NCBI RefSeq assembly: GCF_001751255.1
Contig: NZ_LJGW01000111.1
Location: 62,001 to 126,000 of the forward strand
Direction: 5' to 3'
DNA length: 64,000 bases
Source of the DNA: Streptomyces nanshensis
Lineage (GTDB): Bacteria > Actinomycetota > Actinomycetes > Streptomycetales > Streptomycetaceae
Of the stretch, positions 27,265-38,639 are shown in pieces (position 1 is the first letter of the stretch; each line of letters starts with the position of its first letter). The notes under the pieces were generated by a model. The model had not been told where the DNA came from. It was given only the letters and a program-made list of their open reading frames with translations, and made no database searches. Made by a program: the position numbers and the translations under genes.

Positions 27265-27526
27265 ACGTACGACAGCCGCGCCGGCACGCGTGCGGAACGG
27301 TGAAGAGCACACGCACACGTACGGAACGGCAGAGAGTCGGAAGAGAGCAGAGCAGGCGGAGGGTGCGATACCCGGCGTGGCCGGCGTCAGCCCCGCACGT
27401 TCCCGCGCGATGAGCGCGTCCGGTGCGCCGCTCGCCCGGGCTGCGCCCCGAACGCGCGGGCGGGAGCGGGACGAACAGGAAAGGGCTGCGCCTCGGCGGG
27501 TGCCGTGCCGGCGAGCGCCAAGACGG

Positions 27527-27673
27527 TCAACAGAGGCTGGACTTGACGCTCATCTGGTCGACGTACCTGCGGGCCACGGCGTACAGGGTGACGGCGCAGA
27601 GATCCGGACGGGGAATCCCGGCGAGGGGCGTCGTCACGGGAAGGCGCTGTCCGCCTGCCGTACTGCCTCGCAT
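27527..27673 (-). CDS. Cysteine-ending leader peptide of the sulfonate-type operon
   Basis: A 48-codon frame from ATG 27673, with AGGGGG about six bases upstream, ending AVARRYVDQMSVKSSLC and then TGA. The ending matches the R-R-x-V-D...S-S-x-C pattern of leader peptides described upstream of actinobacterial sulfur genes and aligns with the peptide at 14130-14213. It precedes the NtaA/DszA-like monooxygenase by 364 bases, nearly the same distance as in the other cluster. Shorter starts (GTG at VTTPLAG or VARRYVD) are possible. Cysteine-dependent attenuation is inferred. Confidence 0.65.
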   Translation of the reverse strand: MRGSTAGGQRLPVTTPLAGIPRPDLCAVTLYAVARRYVDQMSVKSSLC

Positions 27674-27834
27674 CCGAGCCCCCTCGGTTCCCGCGATCCG
27701 CTGTGCGCGATCCCGTGCTGTGTATACGCACTGTATCCACTGCGCGGGCCGCAGTGTCAAGGGCCGTCTCATGTGGTGTGCGCTGCGACGCGCGGCGCGG
27801 TGTGCGGCGCGGAGGCCGACGGTGCCCGGCCGGT

Positions 27835-28596
27835 TCAGGATCCTTCCTGCGCGAGGCCCTGGATGCGCAAGTCCCGCATTCTGCCGAGGTGTTCGGCCAT
27901 GGCCGTACGGGCGCGCGGGGCGTCGCCGTCGCGCACCGCGTCGAAGATCGCGGCGTGCTCCTCGACGGTGCGGTCCTCGTCGGCCGTCGTCGCGAAGGCG
28001 GGGCGGTAGATCGCCAGCAGGCTGTCCAGCCGGTCGAGGAATCCGGCGATGATGTCGTTGTGCCCCGCCACTCGCAGGGCCCGGTGCCAGTCCTCGTTCG
28101 CGGCGGTGCGCTCCGCCGAGTCGCGTGCCTCGCGCCGCAGTTCGGCGAGGTGCTCCAGCCTGCTGAGGTCGAAGGCCGTGCGCCGCTCGGCGGCGAGCCC
28201 GGCACCGGTCGACTCCAGCGAGATGCGCGCCTCGTAGATCGAGAGGATCTCCTCGGGCGTGCGCCGCCGTACCAGGAAACCGCGGGAGGTGCGCTCGATG
28301 AACCCGTCCTGCTGGAGCCTGCCCAGCGCCTCCCGTACCGGGGTCCGGGACACCCCGTACCGCTCGCTCAGCGCGGTCTCCAGCAGCACGGTGCCCGGCG
28401 GGTACGTGCCGCCGATCAAGTCCTCCTTGATCCTGGCGTAGTGCATGTCCACACGGTTGCCGGTGCGTCCGCGCGGCGTCGACCCGCCACGGCCGCCGGG
28501 GGCCGAACTCCCGCCCGCGCTCTGCGTGTTCACGCGGCGCGGTCCCGCACGCCCGTCACGCCGCGTCCCCGCGTCCGTCCTGCCCCGGCCATGCAC
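27835..28596 (-). CDS. GntR family transcriptional regulator (FadR/FCD type)
   Basis: A 253-residue repressor. ATG 28596 has GAGGGAG seven bases upstream. About 48 basic, Gly-rich residues precede the winged helix: YARIKEDLIGGTYPPGTVLL, ALSERYGVSRTPVREALGRL and QQDGFIERTSRGFLVRR. The all-helical FCD ligand domain follows (EILSIYEARISLESTGAGLA, NEDWHRALRVAGHNDIIAGF, EEHAAIFDAVRDGDAPRART), with His/Asp residues that usually bind a metal and an organic acid. It lies upstream of, and in the same direction as, the sulfur operon leader and divergent from the ATP-grasp gene. Which of the two it controls is open. Confidence 0.88.
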   Translation of the reverse strand: MHGRGRTDAGTRRDGRAGPRRVNTQSAGGSSAPGGRGGSTPRGRTGNRVDMHYARIKEDLIGGTYPPGTVLLETALSERYGVSRTPVREALGRLQQDGFIERTSRGFLVRRRTPEEILSIYEARISLESTGAGLAAERRTAFDLSRLEHLAELRREARDSAERTAANEDWHRALRVAGHNDIIAGFLDRLDSLLAIYRPAFATTADEDRTVEEHAAIFDAVRDGDAPRARTAMAEHLGRMRDLRIQGLAQEGS

Positions 28597-28867
28597 ACGC
28601 TCCCTCGCCTTGCGAAAACCCCGTGCATCATAGGGCGGCCCGTACGAGGAGACGGAGACGGACCGTGAGTCCCGCCGGCGCCCGACTCGTCTGCCACGTA
28701 CTGCCGTCGGAGACCGACCGCGGCCGGCCTGGCGACGCCGGCTTCGCCACGGGCACGTGCGTACGGGAGCGAGGTGCTTGCCCGGCAGATCGCCGGGTAA
28801 GCGCCGGAAGGTACGGTCATGTCGGCCACGTAGTCGATGCGTTCACGCGCCGAAGGAGAAACGGTCT

Positions 28868-30109
28868 ATGCCACAGGGCGAACCCGCCACCAAAAACCCG
28901 GACAAAGGCTATGTAGCGCTTCTTGGCTGGAGTATCAACGCGGTGGAAGCCCTCGACCGGTTCGACCGGCGATATGTCGTCGTGGCGCCGGAGTGGGCCG
29001 AGGAGTACTGCGTCGAACACGACATCCCCTATGTGCCGTGGAATTTCGAGCGGCTCAACGACCGCTCCATGGAGATCGCCGAGACACTCCAGAAGAAGGG
29101 TGTCGACGTCGCGATCCCGCTGTTCGAGGAAACCGTGGAATGGGCGGGGGCGATCAACTCCGTTCTGCTGGACAACCCGCGTCTGTACGGGCAGTCCCTG
29201 CTGCTGCGGGACAAGGCGCTGATGAAGCGCCGCGCCCAACTCGGCGGCATCCGGGTCGGGATATTCGAGGAGGCCCACGACCGGGACGACGTCATCCGCT
29301 TCCTCAAGCGCGTCAATCAGACTCTGCTCAAGCTGGACGGCGACCCGAACGACCCGATCCATCTCAAGGCGTTCGACAAAGCAGGCTGCCTCGGGCACCG
29401 CGTCATCCGCACCCCGGACGAGATCGACACGATTCCGGAGGAGGAGTTCCCGGTCCTCATGGAATCCCATCTCGACGGCTGGGAGTTCGCCGTCGAGGCG
29501 TGGATACACAACGGGAAGATCAAGTTCCTCAACATCTCCGAATACGTCACGCTGGGATATTCGGTGTTCGTCCCCGCGACTCCGGAACTGGAGCGGTACC
29601 GCCCGCAGATCACGGCGCAGATCGAGAAGCTCATCAAGACGTTCGACATCGAGTTCGGCTTCGTGCACCCGGAGTATTTCGTCACCAGCGACGGCGAGAT
29701 GTACTTCGGCGAGGTCGCCTACCGGCCGCCGGGCTTCAAGGTGTTCGAACTCCTGGAGCGCGCCTACGGGTTCAACGCCTACCATGGGCTCGTGCTGGCC
29801 TTCGACCCGAAGACGACCGAGGAGGAGATCGACGCCTTCTTCCCGCGCGAGGTCGTCGACGCGTCGGGAGTCGCCGGCTGCTTCGGCGTCTACCCGCGCC
29901 GCCGCGTCGTCAGCGACCTGGAGATCCCGGAGGAGACCGAGGACGACGACTACTACGAGTCGCACGACCTCTCCACGCCGCTCGAGGAGACCGTCACCAA
30001 GAGGACCGCGTTCGGCACCCACTGGGGTCTGGTGTACTTCTTCGGCGATGACCCGTACCGGATGCGCGACCTGTTGAAGAAGCAGGAAGAGCTCGACTTC
30101 TACGTCTGA
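28868..30109 (+). CDS. ATP-grasp ligase of unknown substrate
   Basis: A 413-residue ATP-grasp protein, probably joining a carboxylate to an amine with ATP. ATG 28868 has AAGGAG nine bases upstream. The N-terminal domain (GYVALLGWSINAVEALDRFD, YVVVAPEWAEEYCVEHDIPY) precedes the ATP-binding domain with LLLRDKALMKRRAQLGGIRV, LKLDGDPNDPIHLKAFDKAG and VLMESHLDGWEFAVEAWIHN. The metal-binding end is EFGFVHPEYFVTSDGEMYFG followed by EVAYRPPG. The C-terminal part is acidic (EETEDDDYYESHD). The layout resembles carnosine-synthase/L-amino-acid-ligase-like enzymes. The next gene starts within 8-41 bases, so the two are co-expressed. Substrates are unknown. Confidence 0.8.
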   Translation: MPQGEPATKNPDKGYVALLGWSINAVEALDRFDRRYVVVAPEWAEEYCVEHDIPYVPWNFERLNDRSMEIAETLQKKGVDVAIPLFEETVEWAGAINSVLLDNPRLYGQSLLLRDKALMKRRAQLGGIRVGIFEEAHDRDDVIRFLKRVNQTLLKLDGDPNDPIHLKAFDKAGCLGHRVIRTPDEIDTIPEEEFPVLMESHLDGWEFAVEAWIHNGKIKFLNISEYVTLGYSVFVPATPELERYRPQITAQIEKLIKTFDIEFGFVHPEYFVTSDGEMYFGEVAYRPPGFKVFELLERAYGFNAYHGLVLAFDPKTTEEEIDAFFPREVVDASGVAGCFGVYPRRRVVSDLEIPEETEDDDYYESHDLSTPLEETVTKRTAFGTHWGLVYFFGDDPYRMRDLLKKQEELDFYV

Positions 30110-30150
30110 TCGATCCCGTGGACGCAGGAGACCAACCCGAGGGAAACCCT

Positions 30151-32205
30151 TTGAAACCGACCGCCGACGTCAGCGGTGAGGCCACGACGCTGGACAAGCG
30201 CGTGGCCTCGCTCGACGACGCCATCCGGGCCATGGCCGAAACCCGCGACTTCGGCAAGCACACGAAGCTGCGGCGGCTCCTGGAAGCACTGCGTCGGGTG
30301 CTCATGCAGCCGGGCGGCGCCGCGGCCGTCCAGGCCAGGGCGCAGGCCCTCGAGGAGGCCGGGCTCTTCCGGGAGACGGACTGGGCGTCACCGGAGATCC
30401 TCATCCCGTCGCTGGTCAGTCCGGGTCTGCGCAGTGCCGACGCGGACACCGTCGTCATGGAGGCCACCAGCGAGCTGCGGATGCTCGCCGTCGCCCTCGG
30501 CGAGTTCGCGCATCCGACGCTGCCCGCCGAGGACGCCCGCCAGTTCCTGTCCCAGGTGCTGGCGACCAATCTGGAGCTGCTGTTCACCGCGCCCAGCGAG
30601 GCGGAGCGCACCCAGCAGGGCCGTATCGCACAGCTCGTGCGGAGCCTGTTCCGCCATCTCGCCGACGAGATCGGCTACGACAGCGTCCTGGACGACCTGG
30701 TCGACGAGATCTGGCGGATCCTGCGCCAGCGTCCGATCCAGGTCGAGACGGTGCAGTCCCTGATCACCCGGATCGCGGCCTACCGCGACGACCCGGACGT
30801 CGCTCTCGGGGCGTCGTCGGGGCAGGGCGTCGACCGGCTCATCACGAGCCTGTACGGGACCACCGAGGCGTGCCGGGAGGATCCGGGCATCGACGTCTTC
30901 CGCTCCCGGCTCGAGGTGATGGACGCGGGCGGTCTGCAGAACGAGGCGTCGGGGTTCGCGCGGGCGATGCACGACACCGGCCTGGTGTCGCCGTACCACG
31001 CGGAACTGCTCCGGTTCCTTCTGCACGAGAGCGACTACCTCATCGGTGAGGCGCTCGGGCTGTCCGACACCGGCCGCAACTGCCTGCTGCGCTACAGCCA
31101 GTTGGTGCACCGGCTGATCGACGTGGCCGTGCATCCGCAGACCGCGCAGAGCGTCTACGGGCTGGCGCTGCTGCTCGACCGCGGCATCCTCTACGAGCCG
31201 CCGATCGTGCCCGGCCTGTGGCGGCAACTGGCGCTCGAACTCTCCCCGGTCGCACGGGAGCGGCTGACGACGGTCTTCGGCGAGGTGCCGGGGCCGCAGG
31301 CGCGGCTGGTCGCGGGGGTGCTCTCGATGCTGGGCCAGCCGCTCGGCGTCGGCCAGGGCGACAACCCCACCTGCCAGTCGGCACGCGCGCTGTCGATGTG
31401 GTCCTACAACGACCCGGACTATCTGCTGCAGATGGTGGTCTGGGCGGCCCGCGACGACGAGGTCCTCATGCACTTCGAGGGCCAGCCGATCTCGTCGAAG
31501 GACAGCACGGCCGGAGTCGCGAGCACGCTGCCGATGGACCTGGACCCCGTATCGCTGCTCGTGGTGCCTCATCTGGACCGGATCTACGCCGAGATGGGGC
31601 GGCGCTGCGTGGCGCGGCCGGGGGACCCGCACCGGTGGGTCAACCCCGAGTTCCACGGCTGGTGGGCATCCCGCGGGTTCCACATCAACGTCGACGTCGC
31701 GACCGGGAACCTGGTCGATCTGGACGGGTTCCTGCGGCAGTTCCACGCCGGCTACCACCCGTCCTACAACGGCGGGCAGCCGCTGATCCATCCGCAGCCG
31801 GCCGGCGTCGCCGTCACCGACAGCGCGGCCCGGTATGTCGGCTGGCACGCGATCACGATCCTTCGGGCGGCGCCGGACCCCCAGGACGTCATGCGGGTCT
31901 ACTTCTTCAACCCGAACAACGACAGCGGCCAGGACTGGGGCGACGGCGTCGTCGTCTCCACCGCGGGCAACGGCGAGCGGTTCGGCGAAGCCTCGCTGCC
32001 GTTCGACCAGTTCGCCTCGCGGCTCTACATCTTCCACGCCGACCCGCTGGAGCGCGGCGAACCGGAGCGGGTGCCCGCCGAGGACGTCACGCGGATCATC
32101 GGCTACATCGAGCGCAGTTGGGGCAACGACCGGCTGCCCGCGGGGACGCTGCAAGCCGTCGAAGAGCCCCGCGAACCTGTGAGCCCGCCGCGTAACCGGT
32201 CCTGA
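30151..32205 (+). CDS. Large uncharacterised protein with possible papain-like triad
   Basis: A 684-residue cytosolic protein of unknown function. The TTG at 30151 has GAGGG nine bases upstream; an in-frame GTG at 30118 lacks a ribosome site. Residues 1-390 are helical and regulator-like. From about 395 the sequence carries GQGDNPTCQSARALSMWSYN (Cys408), GWWASRGFHINVDVATGNLV, RYVGWHAITILRAAP (His566) and VYFFNPNNDSGQDWG (Asn587). Cys, His and Asn occur in papain order, with strand-like surroundings, so a cysteine peptidase, transglutaminase or acyltransferase is possible. No signal peptide or membrane segment. It follows the ATP-grasp gene as a pair. Function is a hypothesis. Confidence 0.7.
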   Translation: MKPTADVSGEATTLDKRVASLDDAIRAMAETRDFGKHTKLRRLLEALRRVLMQPGGAAAVQARAQALEEAGLFRETDWASPEILIPSLVSPGLRSADADTVVMEATSELRMLAVALGEFAHPTLPAEDARQFLSQVLATNLELLFTAPSEAERTQQGRIAQLVRSLFRHLADEIGYDSVLDDLVDEIWRILRQRPIQVETVQSLITRIAAYRDDPDVALGASSGQGVDRLITSLYGTTEACREDPGIDVFRSRLEVMDAGGLQNEASGFARAMHDTGLVSPYHAELLRFLLHESDYLIGEALGLSDTGRNCLLRYSQLVHRLIDVAVHPQTAQSVYGLALLLDRGILYEPPIVPGLWRQLALELSPVARERLTTVFGEVPGPQARLVAGVLSMLGQPLGVGQGDNPTCQSARALSMWSYNDPDYLLQMVVWAARDDEVLMHFEGQPISSKDSTAGVASTLPMDLDPVSLLVVPHLDRIYAEMGRRCVARPGDPHRWVNPEFHGWWASRGFHINVDVATGNLVDLDGFLRQFHAGYHPSYNGGQPLIHPQPAGVAVTDSAARYVGWHAITILRAAPDPQDVMRVYFFNPNNDSGQDWGDGVVVSTAGNGERFGEASLPFDQFASRLYIFHADPLERGEPERVPAEDVTRIIGYIERSWGNDRLPAGTLQAVEEPREPVSPPRNRS

Positions 32206-32274
32206 GACACGGCGGGTCGGAGGGGCTGAGGCTTCGAACGACCGCCGCCCTCTCCGGGTGTACGGCGACGCCGA

Positions 32275-32316
32275 AGGCCCCGCTCCGGCCGTGCGGTCAC
32301 GGCCGGAGCGGGGCCT
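32275..32316. terminator. Strong bidirectional terminator
   Basis: A perfect 19-base stem, AGGCCCCGCTCCGGCCGTG and its complement, with loop CGGT. It lies between the convergent papain-like gene and the glycine-betaine transporter. Confidence 0.85.
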
Positions 32317-32357
32317 GTCGTCGGACGGGACGGCGCGGCGTCAGCCGCGGCCGGCGG

Positions 32358-34967
32358 TCACTTGACCGGTGCCAGCTTGTCCACGAGGCCCGGGTGGGCG
32401 TCCATCCACTTGCGGGCGGACTCCTTCTCCTTGCCCTGGCCGCCCTTCTGGATCTCGGCCTCCAGTGAGGCGAGGTCCTTCTCGGACATCTTGAACTTCT
32501 TCAGCCACGAGTTCAGTTCGGGCAAGTCCTTGCCGAAGGTCTTCTTCCCGGTGATGTGGATGTCGTCGCCCTTGCCCCAGGCGCCCTTCGGGTCCTTGAG
32601 CTTGGTCAGGTCGTACTTGGCGTACGCCCAGTGCGGCGTCCACAGCGTGACCACGACCGGCTCCTTCTTCTTGATGGAGCGGTCGAGTTCGGACATCATC
32701 GACGCGGTCGAGGACGAGACGATCTTCCAGTCCTCCAAGCCGTACTCCTTGACGACCTTGTCCTTGAGGATGCCCATCTCACCGGCGGACGCCTCGATGC
32801 CGATGATCTTGCCCTTGAACTCGCCCTTGTGCTTCTTCAGATCGTCGAGCGACTTCACGTCCTTCATGTACGACGGCACGGACAGCTCCAGGGACGTGGG
32901 GCCGTACCACTTGCCCACGTCCGTGAGCTTGTCCCCGTACTTGTCCATGTACTGCTTGTGCGTCGTCGGCAGCCAGGCGTCGAACTGGACGTCCATGTCG
33001 CCCTTGGACAGGGCCGTGTAGAGCGGACCCGGGTCGAGCTGCTGGACCTTCGGCTTGTAGCCGCGGTCCTCGAGGATGTTCTCCCACAGATACGTCGTGG
33101 CGATCGCCTCGTCCCACGGGAAGTAGCCGAGGTTGACGGCCTTGCCGGCGTCCTTGCCCTTGGCGTTGCCGCCGCCCGAGACCGGAGCCATCTTGTCGAC
33201 GAGGCCGGGGTGCTTCTTCAGCCACTTCTTGACCGCGTCCTGCTCCTTGCCCTTACCGGCGTCGGTGATCATGCCCTCGAGCTCGGTGAGGTCCTTCTCG
33301 TTCATCTTGAAGTTCTTCAGCCAGGACGCGACCCTCGGGTCGTCGTTGCTGAATCCCTTCCGCGCCACGGTGTGGATCTTGTCGCCCTTGCCCCAGGCGC
33401 CCTTCGGGTCCTTGAGCTTGGTCATGTCGTACTTGCTGTACGCCCAGTGCGGCGACCACAGCGTCGTGACGATGGGCTTCTTGCTCTTGTACGAGCGGTC
33501 CAGCTCGGAGAGCATCGACGCCGTCGAGGAGGAGACGATCTTCCAGTCGGAGAGGCCGTACTCCTTGACGATCTTGTCCTTGAGGATGCCCATCTCACCG
33601 GACGAGGCCTCGATGCCGATGATCTTCTTGCCGAACTTGTCCTCGTTGGCCTTCAGATCGTCCAGGGACTTCACGCCCTTCACATACGAGGGCACCGACA
33701 GCTCCAGCGAGGTGGGGCCGTACCACTGGCCGAAGTCCTCGAGCTTCTTGCCGTACTTCTTCCAGTACTGCTCATGGGTGGTCGGCAGCCAGGTGTCGGT
33801 CTGGAAGTCCAGGTCGCCCTTGGACAGGGCGGTGAACATCGGGCCGGGGTCGAGCTGTTGCAGGGTCGGCTTGTAGCCGCGCTGCTCCAGGACCTCCTTC
33901 CACAGGTACGAGGAGGCGATGCCCTCGTCCCACGGGATGTAGCCCATCTTGATCTGCTTGCCCTTGCCGACGTTCGTGCCGCCCGCCTGACTGGTGCCGT
34001 CGCCGCCGGCCATGTTCATACCGCCCGCGACGAGCGCGAGAACGATGATGCCGACGCCCGCCACGGCGGTGTTGGGACGGTAGTGCACCAGCTTCCAGCC
34101 GCTCGCCATGGCGGCGGCCTTGGCCAGCGCACGGCGCCCGAGCGGAGAGACGCGCTGGTTCAGCGCGGCGGTCATACGGTCCAGGTACATCGCCAGGATG
34201 ACGACCGCGAGGCCCGCCTCGAAACCGGCGCCGATCTCGACGCGCGTCACCGCGTTGTAGACGTCTTCGCCCAGGCCCGAGGCACCGGCCATACCGGCGA
34301 TCACGACCATGGACAGCGCGAGCATGATGACCTGGTTGACGCCGGCCATGATGGTCGGCAGCGCGAGCGGCAACTGGACGCGGCGCAGGGTGTTGCCCGG
34401 CGTGGTCCCGAACGCCTCGGCGGCCTCGACCAGTTCGGAGTCGACCTGCCGGATGCCCAGCTCGGTCATGCGTACGGCCGGCGGCATCGAGAAGATGACG
34501 GTGGCCAGCAGACCCGGCGTGACGCCGACTCCGAAGAAGACGACGCCCGGCAGCAGATAGATCATCGCCGGCATGGTCTGCATGAAGTCCAGGACCGGGC
34601 GCACCGTCGTCGAGACGGCCTTGCTGCGCGAGGCCCAGATGCCCACGGGCACGGCGATGATCAGTGTGATCACGGCGCAGACGAGCACCATGGACAACGT
34701 CATCATCGCGTTGTCCCACAGCTCGACCGAATCGATGATCATGAAGCCGAGCATCGCGAGGAGAGCGGGCAGCAGGCCGCGCAGCCAGAAGGTGACGACG
34801 GCGAGGATGCCGCCCATGAGCAGCGGCTCAGGGGCGCCGAGCACGGCGTTGACGCCGTCGAAGCAGTTGGTCAGTACGGCGCTGATCGCGTCGAACAGCC
34901 ATGTCAGATGGGTCTGGAGCCAGTCGATGAGCGATTCGACCTTGGACCCGAAGTCGAATCTAGGCAC
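32358..34967 (-). CDS. Glycine-betaine ABC permease fused to two tandem substrate-binding domains
   Basis: An 869-residue OpuA-type osmolyte importer subunit. Residues 1-330 form the ProW-like permease ([40 protein letters not shown], EEAAxAFG-type loop [20 protein letters not shown]). Two OpuAC-like binding domains follow, at about 335-595 and 607-869. Both have the cage motif GY[IF]PWDE[GA]IA, then QQLDPGP[ML][FY]TALSKGD[LM][21 protein letters not shown] and WSPHWAY/WTPHWAY. The copies are nearly collinear, a tandem duplication. The start overlaps the ATPase end by eight bases. Tandem domains fused to the permease can raise uptake under osmotic stress. Confidence 0.93.
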
Positions 34968-36027
34968 CGGCGCTCACCTTTTCGCTCTTGCCGTCGTCGG
35001 CTTCGTCGTCGCCGACCGCTTCACCCAGTACCGACAGCAGCCTGTCCCGCTCGACGCGGCCGACCAGGTCGCCGTCGTCGCCCGTGACGCCGACCGCCTC
35101 GTCGCCGCCCGCGAAGGGCGCGAACAGCTCGGCGACCGGGGTGTCCTCCGGCACGCTGATCGCGGCGGAGAAGCTCTTGGCCAGGGCGTCTTCCATGATC
35201 GACCCGGCGGTGAGCACACGGGTGCGGTCGACGTCCTCGACGAAGCGGCGCACGTAGTCGTTCGCCGGACGGACGAGGATGTCCTCGGGGGCGCCGATCT
35301 GCACTATTCGGCCGTCCCGCATGACCGCGATGCGATCGCCGAGGCGCATCGCCTCGTTGAGGTCGTGGGTGATGAAGACGATGGTCTTCTTGAGCTTCTC
35401 CTGAAGCTCCAGGAGCTGGTCCTGCATGTCGCGGCGGATCAGCGGGTCCAGCGCGGAGAAGGACTCGTCCATCAGCAGCAGGTCGGCGTCGGTGGCCAGC
35501 GCGCGGGCCAGGCCGACGCGCTGCTGCATGCCGCCGGAGAGCTCGTCGGGCCAGGACTTCTCCCAGCCTTCGAGCCCGGTGAGCGCCAGCGCCTCCGTGG
35601 CGCGCTCCTCGCGCTCCTTCTTCTCCACGCCCTGGACTTCCAGGCCGTACGCGGCGTTCTCCAGGACGCTGCGGTGCGGGAAGAGCGCGAAGTGCTGGAA
35701 GACCATGCTGATCTTCCTGGCCCGGACCGCGCGGAGGGCGGCGGGGCTCAGCTTCGTCACGTCCTCGCCGTCGAACTTCACGGCGCCCGCCGTCGGCTCG
35801 AGCAGTCCGTTCAGCAGCCGCAGCAGCGTGGACTTGCCGGATCCGGACAGGCCCATCACGACGAAGATCTCGCCGGACTCGACCTCGAAGCTGGCGTCGA
35901 TGACGGCAGCCGTGGTCCCGCTCTTGCGCAATTCGTCGCGGTCGACGCCGGATTCGAGCCGGCTCACTGCCTGTTCCGCTTGTTTGCCGAACACCTTGTA
36001 CAGGTGCTCGGCCTGCAATCTGCTCAC
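34960..36027 (-). CDS. Glycine-betaine/proline ABC transporter ATP-binding protein
   Basis: A 355-residue OpuAA/ProV-type ATPase. The GTG at 36027 ([20 protein letters not shown]) is preceded by GGGG six bases away; the longer upstream frame is low-complexity. Walker [19 protein letters not shown]-loop [20 protein letters not shown], signature [20 protein letters not shown], Walker [21 protein letters not shown] and switch [19 protein letters not shown] are clear. The C-terminal 90 residues form a CBS-like module ([40 protein letters not shown]), which in OpuA senses ionic strength. It overlaps the fused permease/binding gene and is first in the operon. Confidence 0.92.
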
Positions 36028-36280
36028 ATACACCCCATGAGTCGTACGCAAAACGACCCGCCTCCCCCGCCGGCGGGTCGCAGAGCGGCGTGGCATCTGC
36101 CCGGTTTGCACCGTTCTGCGCAGAGGGAGATCGGATCGACTCCGCATGCGCCGCTGCCCAGACTTATGTGTCTCAAACACATCCGATGACGCACGCCACG
36201 GCCGACTCACGGTGAACGCTCGGCATATCGGCACCGCCGGACGGCGGGCGAACCGGTCATCTCACGGTTGGTCATTGGTA

Positions 36281-36298
36281 GTTACACCCAAGTTATAC
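36281..36298. promoter_or_regulatory. Direct repeat upstream of the betaine transporter
   Basis: GTTACAC (36281-36287) and GTTATAC (36292-36298) are spaced 11 bases, about one helical turn, as OmpR-type response regulators prefer. It lies about 260 bases upstream of the ATPase start. Involvement of MtrA or a similar osmotic regulator is only a suggestion. No other feature was seen in 36028-36372. Confidence 0.35.
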
Positions 36299-36372
36299 AC
36301 CCTTCAGCCACCACCGGGACCGTCCGCGCAGCGCACGGAGCCCGTGCGGGCCGCCGCGTCCGCGGTGGAAGC

Positions 36373-36416
36373 GTGACGGATCCCGCACCGGTCGCTCCCG
36401 GTACGGGATCCGTCAC
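36373..36416 (-). terminator. Terminator after the sedolisin gene
   Basis: Stem GTGACGGATCCCGCACCGG with CCGGTACGGGATCCGTCAC (one mismatch) and a 6-base loop, 28 bases downstream of the minus-strand stop at 36444. Confidence 0.75.
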
Positions 36417-36443
36417 GGCGTGCTCACGACCGCCGGTCGGCTG

Positions 36444-38396
36444 CTAGTGACGCTTGAAGGACTTCAGGTAGCGCGCCGTGGGCGAGCCGACGCCGGTGAC
36501 GTCGTCGTAGCCCCGTACGGCCTTGAGCGAGCTGTCCTTGCCCAGCGTGCGCAGCGTGGTCTTCAGACCCTCGGAGTCGTCGGCGCCGTTGGCGAAGTCG
36601 ACGCGGGCCACCGCGAGATCGGTCGTCGGACCGCGCGGGTGGTCGGTGACGTCGTGGTACGCCTTGGTGCCGAACCGGGCGTAGATCGCCGGGTTGGCGA
36701 AGCCGATCGGCTTGCCGTGCCCGGCCTGCTGCGCCAGTGCCTGTACGCCGGCGACGACCGGTGCCGCCAGCGACGTGCCGCCGATGCGGTATTCGCTGTA
36801 CTTCTCCGAGCCGTCGGTCTGCTGCTGCGTCTGCCCCACGAGGAAGCCGGTGTTGGGGTCGGCCACCGCCGCGATGTCGGGCAGGACGCGCTGCCGGGTC
36901 GGGCCGTTGGCCTTGGCGAGCGCGTCCGGTACGACGCCGCGCTGGTAGAACGGCTGGTCGTAGGTCTTGCTCGTACCGCCGCCCGCGCCGGAGGTGAACG
37001 GGCCGGGCAGGCCCTTCCAGCTCTTGCCGTTCTTCGACAGCGGGGCCTGATCGGTGCCCCAACCGGTCTCGAACGTATAGCGGTCGCCCTTGCCGACGGC
37101 GAGGCTGGTGCCCCCGACCGCCGTCACCCAGGGCGAGTTGGCGGGGGTGTCGACCTGCTTGGTGCCGGTGCTGGCGACGTTGTCGCCGTCGTCGCCGGAG
37201 GAGAAGTAGAAGCCGATGCCCTCGATGGCGCCGAGCTGGAAGACGTGGTCGTAGGCGGCTGCCACGTCCGGTGTCTCGTTCTCCTCCACATCGCCCCAGG
37301 AGTTGGAGACGACGTCGGCGAGCCGGTTGTCGACGATCTTGCTGAGCGAGTCGAGCAGGTCGGCGTCCTGGCAGGAGGCGCCGCCGACATAGGTGATGTC
37401 CGCGGCGGGCGCGAGCGCGTGCACGGCCTCCACGTCCAGGGTCTCCTCGCCGTACCAGCCGGCCGCGTCGCAGTCCTTGGTGTGGTTGTAGTCATCGGGC
37501 AGCACCTGGCTCAACTGCCCCTTCCGGTACGCCTTGTCGCCGTTGCGGCGCGCGTACTCGGAGGCGTCCTCGGCGATGGACGGCGAGGCGTAGGCGTCGG
37601 TGATCGCGACGGTCACGCCCTTGCCGGTCAGCCCCGAACCGGCGGCGCCGTAGGCCGCGCGCAACTGCTTGCCGGTGTAGCCCTTGACGGCGTAAGGCAC
37701 GTGCTTTCCGTACGCCTTGGGAAGGCCGGTCGCCGTCTTCGAGCCGTGATAGCTGGAGAACGGGCCGGAGTTGCGGAAGACCGGTCCGGGCGGCGGCAGT
37801 TCCTCGTCGTGCTCGGCGAGCTTGGGCGCGTTGTCCAGGCCGACGACGGTCAGCACCGCTCCGTGCAGCGAGGACGGCACGGACGCGGCGGTCTGCGGCG
37901 CGCGGTACGTCTTGCCGTCCTTGGAGTAGTCGTGCAGCTTCGTGGCGAAGGCCTTCTCCGTCGCCGCGGTGTCACCCGTGACCGAGACATAGTGCTCGTC
38001 GGTGCCGGTCACCTTCATCCCGGCGGACTTCAACCAGGCGGTGACGGCGGACTTCTGGGCCTTGGTCGGGCCGTAGCGTGCGCGTGCCTGCCGCGCGGAC
38101 AGGTACTTGTGGTACGAGGCGGAGCCGGGCTCGGAGACGGACCTGGCGTAGTCCGCGAGCCCGGCGGCGTCACGTCCGGCGAGGTAGACCCGGGCGGTCA
38201 CCTTCGCGGATCCGGTGGTGCTGCCGCGGTCGGCCTTCGTGGTCGCCCACTGCGGCTTGGTGGTCTTCAGCACGTGCCGACCGTGCTGTGCGCCGTCGGC
38301 ATGGGCCGGTATGCCCAGGGCGAACGCGCCGGCGATCAGCGGCAGCGTGACGGCCACGGCTACGCCGGCGCGCGTTCTCGGACGGGCGATTTTCAT
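36444..38396 (-). CDS. Secreted S53 peptidase (sedolisin/kumamolisin type, with propeptide)
   Basis: A 650-residue secreted acid serine peptidase. ATG 38396 has AAGGGGG four bases upstream. The signal peptide contains GVAVAVTLPLIAGAFALGIP ending at AHA. A pro-kumamolisin domain (about 45-215) has SYHKYLSARQARARYGPTKA and VTGDTAATEKAFATKLHDYS. The catalytic domain shows GEETLDVEAVHALAPAADIT (Glu317, Asp321) and GGTSLAAPVVAGVQALAQQA (Ser542); SNSWGD holds the oxyanion Asp. A calcium site is expected near the C-terminus (DDVTGVGSPTA). It is active at low pH after self-cleavage, and likely used for protein nutrition. It is monocistronic. Confidence 0.95.
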   Translation of the reverse strand: MKIARPRTRAGVAVAVTLPLIAGAFALGIPAHADGAQHGRHVLKTTKPQWATTKADRGSTTGSAKVTARVYLAGRDAAGLADYARSVSEPGSASYHKYLSARQARARYGPTKAQKSAVTAWLKSAGMKVTGTDEHYVSVTGDTAATEKAFATKLHDYSKDGKTYRAPQTAASVPSSLHGAVLTVVGLDNAPKLAEHDEELPPPGPVFRNSGPFSSYHGSKTATGLPKAYGKHVPYAVKGYTGKQLRAAYGAAGSGLTGKGVTVAITDAYASPSIAEDASEYARRNGDKAYRKGQLSQVLPDDYNHTKDCDAAGWYGEETLDVEAVHALAPAADITYVGGASCQDADLLDSLSKIVDNRLADVVSNSWGDVEENETPDVAAAYDHVFQLGAIEGIGFYFSSGDDGDNVASTGTKQVDTPANSPWVTAVGGTSLAVGKGDRYTFETGWGTDQAPLSKNGKSWKGLPGPFTSGAGGGTSKTYDQPFYQRGVVPDALAKANGPTRQRVLPDIAAVADPNTGFLVGQTQQQTDGSEKYSEYRIGGTSLAAPVVAGVQALAQQAGHGKPIGFANPAIYARFGTKAYHDVTDHPRGPTTDLAVARVDFANGADDSEGLKTTLRTLGKDSSLKAVRGYDDVTGVGSPTARYLKSFKRH

Positions 38397-38639
38397 GGAA
38401 CCCCCTTCGAAATCGGCCGCGATCTTGGTCGCGAACCGACGGTGTCCGGTGGGAGACACCGTGCTGCGCCAATATTTCGCTGATCTGGACATGCCAGGGA
38501 ATGGCGTGCCTCAAGAACAAGCCAAGGAACGGCAATGGAAGCCGTGTTCGCGGTCCGGAGTGCCGCTTCGGGGACGCAGGCAGGGGGTGCTATGGAGGCG
38601 TACTAGCGTCAGGCCCGCGCCGGATCAGGCCGGGGCCGC

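What the first reader, a model, noticed from the sequence alone, without database searches (positions are those of the whole stretch)
28868..32205. ATP-grasp ligase paired with a large protein carrying a possible papain-like triad
The 413-residue ligase and the 684-residue protein are closely linked (41 bases or less) and isolated from any known pathway. The second protein has Cys408, His566 and Asn587 in papain order within strand-rich motifs (TCQSARALSMW, GWHAITILRA, FFNPNNDSG). I know no described system with this pair. It could make or trim a peptide-like metabolite or modify a protein: ligase adds, thiol enzyme cleaves or transfers.
Basis: partly seen in the sequence, partly recalled or inferred. 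Interest (0 to 1): 0.7.

Follow-up and report, generated by a model that had tools for sequence, protein, structure and literature searches.

The report
Paired ATP-grasp ligase and papain-like enzyme
Two neighbouring bacterial genes, one for an enzyme that joins molecules with ATP and one for a new relative of papain that should cut or transfer such joins, travel together in scattered soil and marine bacteria, and the searches made here found no description of what they do.

Summary
The ligase (28868-30109, 413 aa) and the second gene (30151-32205, TTG start, 684 aa) are real and 41 nt apart. They are linked in 80 of 80 related loci examined. In a sample of 398 Pseudomonadota genomes the same 11 carry both families and 387 carry neither at the thresholds used. 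No third gene is widely conserved.

The second protein matches no Pfam or NCBIfam model, but residues 345-664 fold as a papain/calpain-like domain (AF2 pLDDT 89.7; Foldseek E 4.9e-4 to calpain-3). Cys408 opens a helix six residues after Gln402, His566 lies on a strand, and Asn587 follows the next strand. All four are invariant in 100 of 100 sequences, down to 49% identity. The ligase keeps the ATP-grasp residues that I checked. Its end, DFY[VIL], is invariant in 102 of 102 distinct sequences.

Most likely this is a two-enzyme amide module: the ligase makes a peptide-like amide and the thiol enzyme transfers or hydrolyses its acyl group through Cys408. The substrate is unknown. A writer/eraser pair on a protein, like RimK/RimB, is the main rival.

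The parts
28868..30109 (+). ATP-grasp amide ligase, 413 aa, ATG start; ends in the invariant C-terminus DFYV
   Evidence: Pfam ATP-grasp_4 E 4e-5 (23.7 bits, below the 27-bit cutoff); NCBIfam PRK07206 E 1.1e-5 (24.4 bits, cutoff 302); PDB profile best match L-amino acid ligase BL00235 E 0.0031; 18 of 19 chosen ATP-grasp positions invariant in 100 of 100 distinct sequences
30110..30150 (+). 41-nt spacer with a ribosome-binding-like purine stretch (gagggaaa); spacing mostly 36-43 nt in relatives
30151..32205 (+). Second gene, 684 aa, TTG start: helical N-terminal part plus papain/calpain-like C-terminal domain
   Evidence: no Pfam or NCBIfam match at E<=1
30151..31182 (+). N-terminal part (residues 1-344), helical in the model, fold unassigned
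   Evidence: 10-residue block pLDDT 43-96; only short, middling-Z helical matches; not predicted alone
31183..32142 (+). Papain-like domain (residues 345-664)
   Evidence: AF2 pLDDT 89.7, pTM 0.88; Foldseek calpain-3 E 4.9e-4; VIA Z 8.1, rmsd 4.6, 209 aligned
31354..31356 (+). Gln402, six residues before Cys408, candidate oxyanion-hole residue
   Evidence: Invariant 100 of 100
31372..31374 (+). Cys408, candidate nucleophile, first residue of a helix
   Evidence: Invariant 100 of 100; only invariant Cys; helix start
31846..31848 (+). His566, in the strand 562-575
   Evidence: Invariant 100 of 100
31909..31911 (+). Asn587, directly after the strand 581-586, in the motif NPNND
   Evidence: Invariant 100 of 100

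Best explanation
The two genes form a two-enzyme amide module that is inherited as a unit. Step 1 (inferred from family): the ATP-grasp ligase activates a carboxylate as an acyl phosphate with ATP and joins it to an amine, giving a dipeptide-like or other amide. Step 2 (inferred from fold and residues): the partner attacks that amide, or an activated acyl group derived from it, with Cys408, assisted by His566/Asn587 and an oxyanion hole at Gln402. The acyl-enzyme is then passed to a second acceptor (transferase) or to water (amidase). Shown: conserved candidate catalytic residues in both, a papain-like fold in the model, strict pairing, no other widely conserved gene. Not shown: substrate, product, any activity, and transfer versus hydrolysis.
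For: Pairing: 80 of 80 loci and an identical set of 11 carriers in a sample of 398 Pseudomonadota genomes; the centre G778 was picked because it has the pair, so 10 of 397 are independent. Ligase: the families with a hit are ATP-grasp_4, PRK07206 and, among solved structures, the L-amino acid ligases 3vot (E 0.0031) and 4wd3 (E 0.017), which I take as small-molecule ligases; chosen catalytic positions are invariant. Thiol enzyme: Q-x5-C, H and N invariant; papain-like domain model, whose structural neighbours include an enzyme that acts on a small peptide, phytochelatin synthase Alr0975 (Z 7.2, rmsd 4.5, 153 aligned). Precedent for papain-like transacylases in operons that also hold peptide ligases: passages of PMC2922099 and PMC10318531. 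Neither protein shows an obvious signal peptide by eye.
Against: No transporter, carrier protein or other biosynthetic gene was seen to recur beside the pair, which is odd for a metabolite pathway. The 344-residue helical N-terminal part would also suit a protein partner or protein substrate. The ligase matches are below the curated cutoffs. Separate copies of each partner exist in genomes that also hold the pair. The Foldseek match has low TM-scores (0.33-0.34), and the whole-protein model found helical-repeat proteins first.
Confidence: 0.45

Rival explanations
1. Writer/eraser pair on a protein: the ligase adds amino acids to a protein (tail or side chain) and the papain-like enzyme removes them, as RimK and RimB do on ribosomal protein RpsF.
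For: Strict pairing; a large helical part that could bind protein; the patchy spread of a self-contained pair resembles rim genes, whose evolution is described as distinct from that of the hosts (passages of PMC11957791). Eukaryotic parallel (recalled): TTL ligase and vasohibin.
Against: The ligase hits ATP-grasp_4 and amino-acid ligases; no RimK-family match was listed at E<=1. No candidate protein target is linked.
Confidence: 0.25
2. The papain-like enzyme regulates the ligase itself: it docks on, trims or becomes acylated by the ligase's invariant free C-terminus (DFY[VIL]-COOH), switching ligase activity.
For: 102 of 102 distinct ligases end in DFY[VIL] with no extension, with synonymous codon changes and all three stop codons, whereas the C-terminus of the partner varies.
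Against: A buried C-terminus in the ligase's own fold or dimer would explain the same conservation. Ligase copies without the partner beside them keep the tail too (L145, L148 and, at a contig end, L146).
Confidence: 0.1
3. Anti-phage defence or toxin/antitoxin cassette.
For: Patchy two-gene island without widely conserved neighbours.
Against: No PADLOC match at E<=1 and no PHROG match better than E 0.25. High conservation (ligase 76-96% identical to the window's in the 19 relatives) is unlike fast-evolving conflict genes. No relative confirmed in viral contigs, and the second protein in one of 72,556 plasmid records.
Confidence: 0.05

Closest known systems
RimK/RimB (ATP-grasp poly-glutamate ligase plus retropepsin-like protease of Pseudomonas; PMC11957791, passages seen)
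   Same: An ATP-grasp ligase and a peptide-bond-breaking partner encoded together, with a distribution that does not follow the hosts
   Different: RimB is an aspartic retropepsin, not papain-like; RimK is another ATP-grasp family (recalled); no such matches here
BtrJ/BtrH of butirosin biosynthesis (BtrH from passages of PMC10318531 and PMC2922099; BtrJ role recalled)
   Same: ATP-grasp ligase and papain-fold acyltransferase in one pathway
   Different: Uses an acyl carrier protein and a large cluster; no BtrH_N match was listed at E<=1
Glutathionylspermidine synthetase/amidase and trypanothione synthetase (recalled)
   Same: ATP-grasp-type synthetase combined with a papain-clan amidase on the same amide
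   Different: Fused in one chain with a CHAP amidase; no CHAP or GSP_synth match was listed here
Calpain protease core (PDB 6bjd, 6bdt)
   Same: Best structural match of the domain; Cys, His and Asn-Pro in the same order (calpain residues recalled)
   Different: No sequence relation found (domain profile against PDB sequences: no match at E<=10); bacterial, with a different N-terminal part
Phytochelatin synthase Alr0975 (PDB 6tho, 2bu3)
   Same: Papain-like thiol enzyme that forms an acyl-enzyme with glutathione (entry titles)
   Different: One of several fold-level matches (Z 7.2); no ligase partner gene known to me
L-amino acid ligases BL00235 (3vot) and 4wd3
   Same: Closest solved relatives of the ligase by sequence profile
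   Different: Weak (E 0.0031 and 0.017), covering about residues 192-309 only

Membership tests
ATP-grasp superfamily | Sequence profile match above the curated cutoff | tested here: inconclusive
   ATP-grasp_4 E 4e-5, 23.7 bits against cutoff 27; PRK07206 E 1.1e-5, 24.4 against 302
ATP-grasp superfamily | Conserved ATP/Mg-binding Lys, Glu, Glu, Arg | tested here: met
   K116, K167, E269, E282, R286 invariant in 100 of 100 distinct sequences; E269/E282/R286 lie in the stretch aligned to BL00235; the roles and the Lys assignment are recalled
L-amino acid ligase (dipeptide synthase) | Full-length homology to a characterised member | tested here: inconclusive
   Only about residues 192-309 align, E 0.0031 and 0.017
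L-amino acid ligase (dipeptide synthase) | ATP-dependent dipeptide formation | not testable with these tools
   Needs purified enzyme
Papain-like thiol enzymes (clan CA fold) | Gln six before Cys at a helix start, His on a strand, Asn/Asp after the next strand, all conserved | tested here: met
   papain's own spacing is recalled; inter-residue distances not measured (coordinates not available to me)
Papain-like thiol enzymes (clan CA fold) | Fold match to solved members | tested here: met
   Foldseek calpain-3 E 4.9e-4, prob 0.99, TM 0.33-0.34; VIA Z 8.1, rmsd 4.6, 209 aligned; staphopain Z 6.8, 3.9 A, 139; Z in this range is middling by the tool's own note
Any described Pfam/NCBIfam papain-like family | Sequence match to a curated family model | tested here: not met
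   0 families at E<=1 in Pfam and NCBIfam
Calpain (C2) family | Sequence homology to calpains | tested here: not met
   52-row domain profile against all PDB sequences: 0 matches at E<=10
RimK/RimB system | RimK-type ATP-grasp and retropepsin-like partner | tested here: not met
   No such Pfam match listed at E<=1
BtrJ/BtrH system | BtrH_N domain in the thiol enzyme | tested here: not met
   No Pfam match listed at E<=1
BtrJ/BtrH system | Acyl carrier protein gene nearby | tested here: inconclusive
   Only 25 of 98 families over 93 immediate neighbours were shown; none of those is an ACP
Glutathionylspermidine synthetase/amidase | CHAP amidase and GSP_synth domains | tested here: not met
   No Pfam match listed at E<=1
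Known anti-phage defence systems | Match to PADLOC-DB models | tested here: not met
   0 families at E<=1

The most novel reading that the evidence does not exclude
A previously undescribed write/erase system: the ATP-grasp enzyme conjugates an amino acid or small acid to a protein C-terminus, possibly its own invariant DFY[VIL] tail, and a bacterial calpain-like enzyme reads or removes that mark, so the pair is a self-contained tagging switch found in both Actinomycetota and Pseudomonadota.
Probability: 0.15. Interest if true: 0.85.

Novelty: new variant of a known kind. Interest (0 to 1): 0.6.

Why it matters
A two-gene module this conserved and this strictly co-inherited probably makes or controls something worthwhile. 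It is small enough to express whole and assay, so an unknown metabolite or modification in Streptomyces, Saccharopolyspora, Amycolatopsis, Nocardia and halophilic proteobacteria becomes directly testable. It also adds a bacterial papain-like family with its own large helical part.

Tried and rejected
Conserved third gene: ORFs of the 80 loci were clustered (40 clusters shown). Apart from the pair and a 22-locus shadow ORF opposite it, the largest cluster spans 9 loci, 8 of them Rhodococcus/Rhodococcoides or Williamsia. The window's own flanks were not part of that clustering. A Pfam scan of 93 of 98 immediate neighbours (5 dropped for length; 49 non-redundant loci out of 91) shows no family in more than 4. 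My ORF caller is crude, so rare partners could be missed.

Polyamine or acetyl-polyamine link: one separate copy lies 3 nt behind an ABC permease gene (L126; polyamine type judged by eye), and an HDAC-like gene sits beside another (L132). At E<=1e-40 the HDAC query matched 11 of 11 pair-carrying and 7 of 20 other Pseudomonadota; copies at 66% identity or more occur in 8 of 11 and 0 of 20, but in 0 of 11 pair-carrying Streptomycetaceae and 0 of 3 other actinobacterial carriers (best 46%). I read this as a lineage effect.

Glutathione/Memo link: a GCS2-type and an AstE/AspA-type gene beside the separate copies L122 (Pfam) and L128 (by eye), and Memo plus a radical SAM gene beside L122. None of these families is among the 25 shown, so the lead was not pursued.

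Weak hits set aside as not real relatives: G228, G671 and G722. RNA element: no Rfam match in 27300-36500. Viral carriage: 4 pattern matches, none confirmed. The whole-protein model gave beta-catenin-like helical matches first, E 0.027 and worse, with calpain-5 at rank 16. Absence of other families from the VIA lists is not evidence against them.
Full report
WHAT IS THERE. The ligase gene runs 28868-30109 (ATG, 413 aa); after 41 nt comes a TTG-started gene, 30151-32205 (684 aa), with a purine-rich stretch before the start. Each query matched one place in its own genome. Upstream, on the other strand, are a GntR/FCD regulator and genes for a luciferase-like monooxygenase, a rhodanese and an NMT1-type ABC transporter; downstream, on the other strand, is a glycine-betaine-type ABC transporter. 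Beyond the pair no gene recurs widely in the flanks of relatives (in which the window's own flanks were not included; 2 of the 93 neighbours are luciferase-like).

PAIRING. All 80 carry the ligase directly upstream on the same strand; in L052 it is cut by the contig end and in L083 it lies in two frames. In the host family 12 of 394 genomes matched; one, G228, is a 78-residue hit at E 4.6e-4 and was set aside, and all 11 others carry the ligase beside it. In the phylum sample 6 of 396 matched, two of them weak short hits, leaving 4 with the window's genome. In a sample of 398 Pseudomonadota genomes the second protein was found in 11 (E<=0.001) and the ligase (E<=1e-40) in the same 11, with no match in the other 387 of each search. 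The two calls used the same centre, size and handles as far as listed. The centre was itself a known carrier, so the unbiased count is 10 of 397. In 10 of those 11 the paired copy is tandem; in G975 it is divergent. Pairwise distances of the two proteins correlate across 91 loci (Pearson 0.89), though shared ancestry alone would also give this. The ligase changes about half as fast (mean distance 0.14 against 0.29).

EXCEPTIONS THAT INFORM. Three Pseudomonadota genomes (G852, G920, G956) hold extra copies of the second protein at about 50% identity. In L123 and L147 such a copy stands divergently beside a second, about 75% identical ligase, and in L125 likewise with one gene between. Copies of the second protein with no ligase nearby stand in L122, L126, L128 and L129, and ligases without the partner in L145 and L148; L146 looks the same but its contig ends about 200 nt after the ligase. 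So the partners can be encoded apart, but each separate copy was found in a genome that also holds the pair.

THE SECOND PROTEIN. No Pfam or NCBIfam family at E<=1 and no PDB relative by sequence (one hit at E 0.87, which I take as chance; none with the domain profile at E<=10). An AF2 model of the whole protein (24 rows, pLDDT 75.4, pTM 0.63) is helical up to about residue 433 and alpha/beta after it. The domain 345-664 alone, with 52 rows, reaches pLDDT 89.7 and pTM 0.88. Foldseek gives six matches at E<=0.001, all calpain cores (best 6bjd, E 4.9e-4, probability 0.99, TM-scores 0.33-0.34). VIA-align gives calpain-3 Z 8.1 (rmsd 4.6, 209 aligned), PCAT1 Z 7.9 (2.7 A, 122), phytochelatin synthase Alr0975 Z 7.2 (4.5 A, 153), staphopain Z 6.8 (3.9 A, 139), then cathepsins, ZUP1 and bleomycin hydrolase. 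The tool warns that Z below 8 is often a common arrangement; here nearly all 50 listed rows are, as far as I know them, papain-fold enzymes, which is why I trust it. Cys408 is the first residue of a helix, Gln402 six residues before it as in papain (Gln19/Cys25 recalled), His566 on the strand 562-575, and Asn587 right after the strand 581-586. From the first aligned residue to the cysteine the offset equals that in staphopain (14) and PCAT1 (13) if no gap lies between (Cys numbers there recalled). Gln402, Cys408, His566 and Asn587 are invariant in all 100 sequences compared, the window and 99 relatives from 48.6% identity upwards, not all of them distinct; 115 of 684 positions are invariant and Cys408 is the only invariant cysteine. 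The comparison left out loci L001-L012, the fragment L014, the weak hits and duplicate extracts. The extra copies L116-L121 keep all four. I could not read coordinates, so distances within the triad were not measured.

THE LIGASE. It matches ATP-grasp_4 (E 4e-5, under the curated cutoff), NCBIfam PRK07206 (E 1.1e-5, far below its cutoff) and, by profile, two solved L-amino acid ligases (E 0.0031 and 0.017). Of 19 positions that I picked as likely ATP-grasp hallmarks, 18 are invariant in 100 of 100 distinct sequences (D203 is S in 5; matches spanning under 380 residues were left out). Its last four residues are D-F-Y-[V/I/L] in 102 of 102 distinct sequences, never extended, with synonymous codon changes and all three stop codons (136 of 137 ends were complete). 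A free C-terminus this constant is striking, and I do not know its role.

MECHANISM. Fold and residues suggest that both proteins are active enzymes; linkage suggests that they act in one process. The ligase's nearest solved relatives make dipeptide-like small molecules, and papain-fold transacylases in operons with peptide ligases have been proposed or shown elsewhere (passages of PMC2922099; PMC10318531). I therefore favour a small amide product that the thiol enzyme transfers or hydrolyses (0.45). A writer/eraser pair on a protein, as with RimK and RimB (passages of PMC11957791), is the main rival (0.25). Regulation through the ligase tail (0.1) and defence (0.05) are less likely. The remainder is something not listed.

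NOVELTY. Ten full-text searches of the open-licence library (listings seen, four of them capped: 20 of 29, 12 of 49, 8 of 19, 12 of 26) returned no paper that, from title or abstract, describes this pair. Subscription papers are mostly not held, and the 2009 amidoligase survey by Iyer and colleagues could not be opened. Pairing an ATP-grasp ligase with a thiol enzyme has precedents, so I call this a new variant of a known kind, built from a papain-like family that Pfam and NCBIfam do not name.

I corrected the meaning of the 568 stretches, the status of L146, the distance of the fragment L014, the wording on the window's own neighbours and the full result of the HDAC control.

Noticed in passing
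window 30095-30109 and relatives: The ligase's extreme C-terminus DFY[VIL]-stop is invariant in 102 of 102 distinct sequences with no extension; role unknown.
   Followed up: partly
L122:5219-11868, L128:7025-12841: Separate copies of the second protein sit near a GCS2-type ligase and an AstE/AspA-type gene (Pfam for L122, by eye for L128), in L122 also 23 nt behind a Memo-family gene with a radical SAM gene next to it.
   Followed up: partly
L126:2941-8870: A separate copy starts 3 nt behind a BPD_transp_1 permease gene; the ABC binding-protein gene upstream looks like a polyamine type by eye.
   Followed up: partly
L132:6591-7709: An HDAC-like gene convergent with the second protein; copies at 66% identity or more in 8 of 11 pair-carrying Pseudomonadota, 0 of 20 others and 0 of 14 actinobacterial carriers.
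   Followed up: yes
L014 (G212:C13:210415-210804): A 129-residue stretch, 82% identical to residues 518-646 of the 695-aa query, lies about 8.4 kb from the complete gene in the same genome, within an open frame of 338 aa.
   Followed up: no
window 32358-34967: Glycine-betaine ABC gene fusing a permease with two matched OpuAC binding-domain stretches.
   Followed up: no
window 36444-38492: Serine peptidase with a pro-kumamolisin activation domain and a subtilase-family match.
   Followed up: no
spacer 30110-30150 and relatives: The second gene's mostly non-ATG start (TTG 49, GTG 19, ATG 10 of 78) and a 36-43 nt spacer (58 of 78) are kept across genera; possibly a fixed translation ratio.
   Followed up: partly
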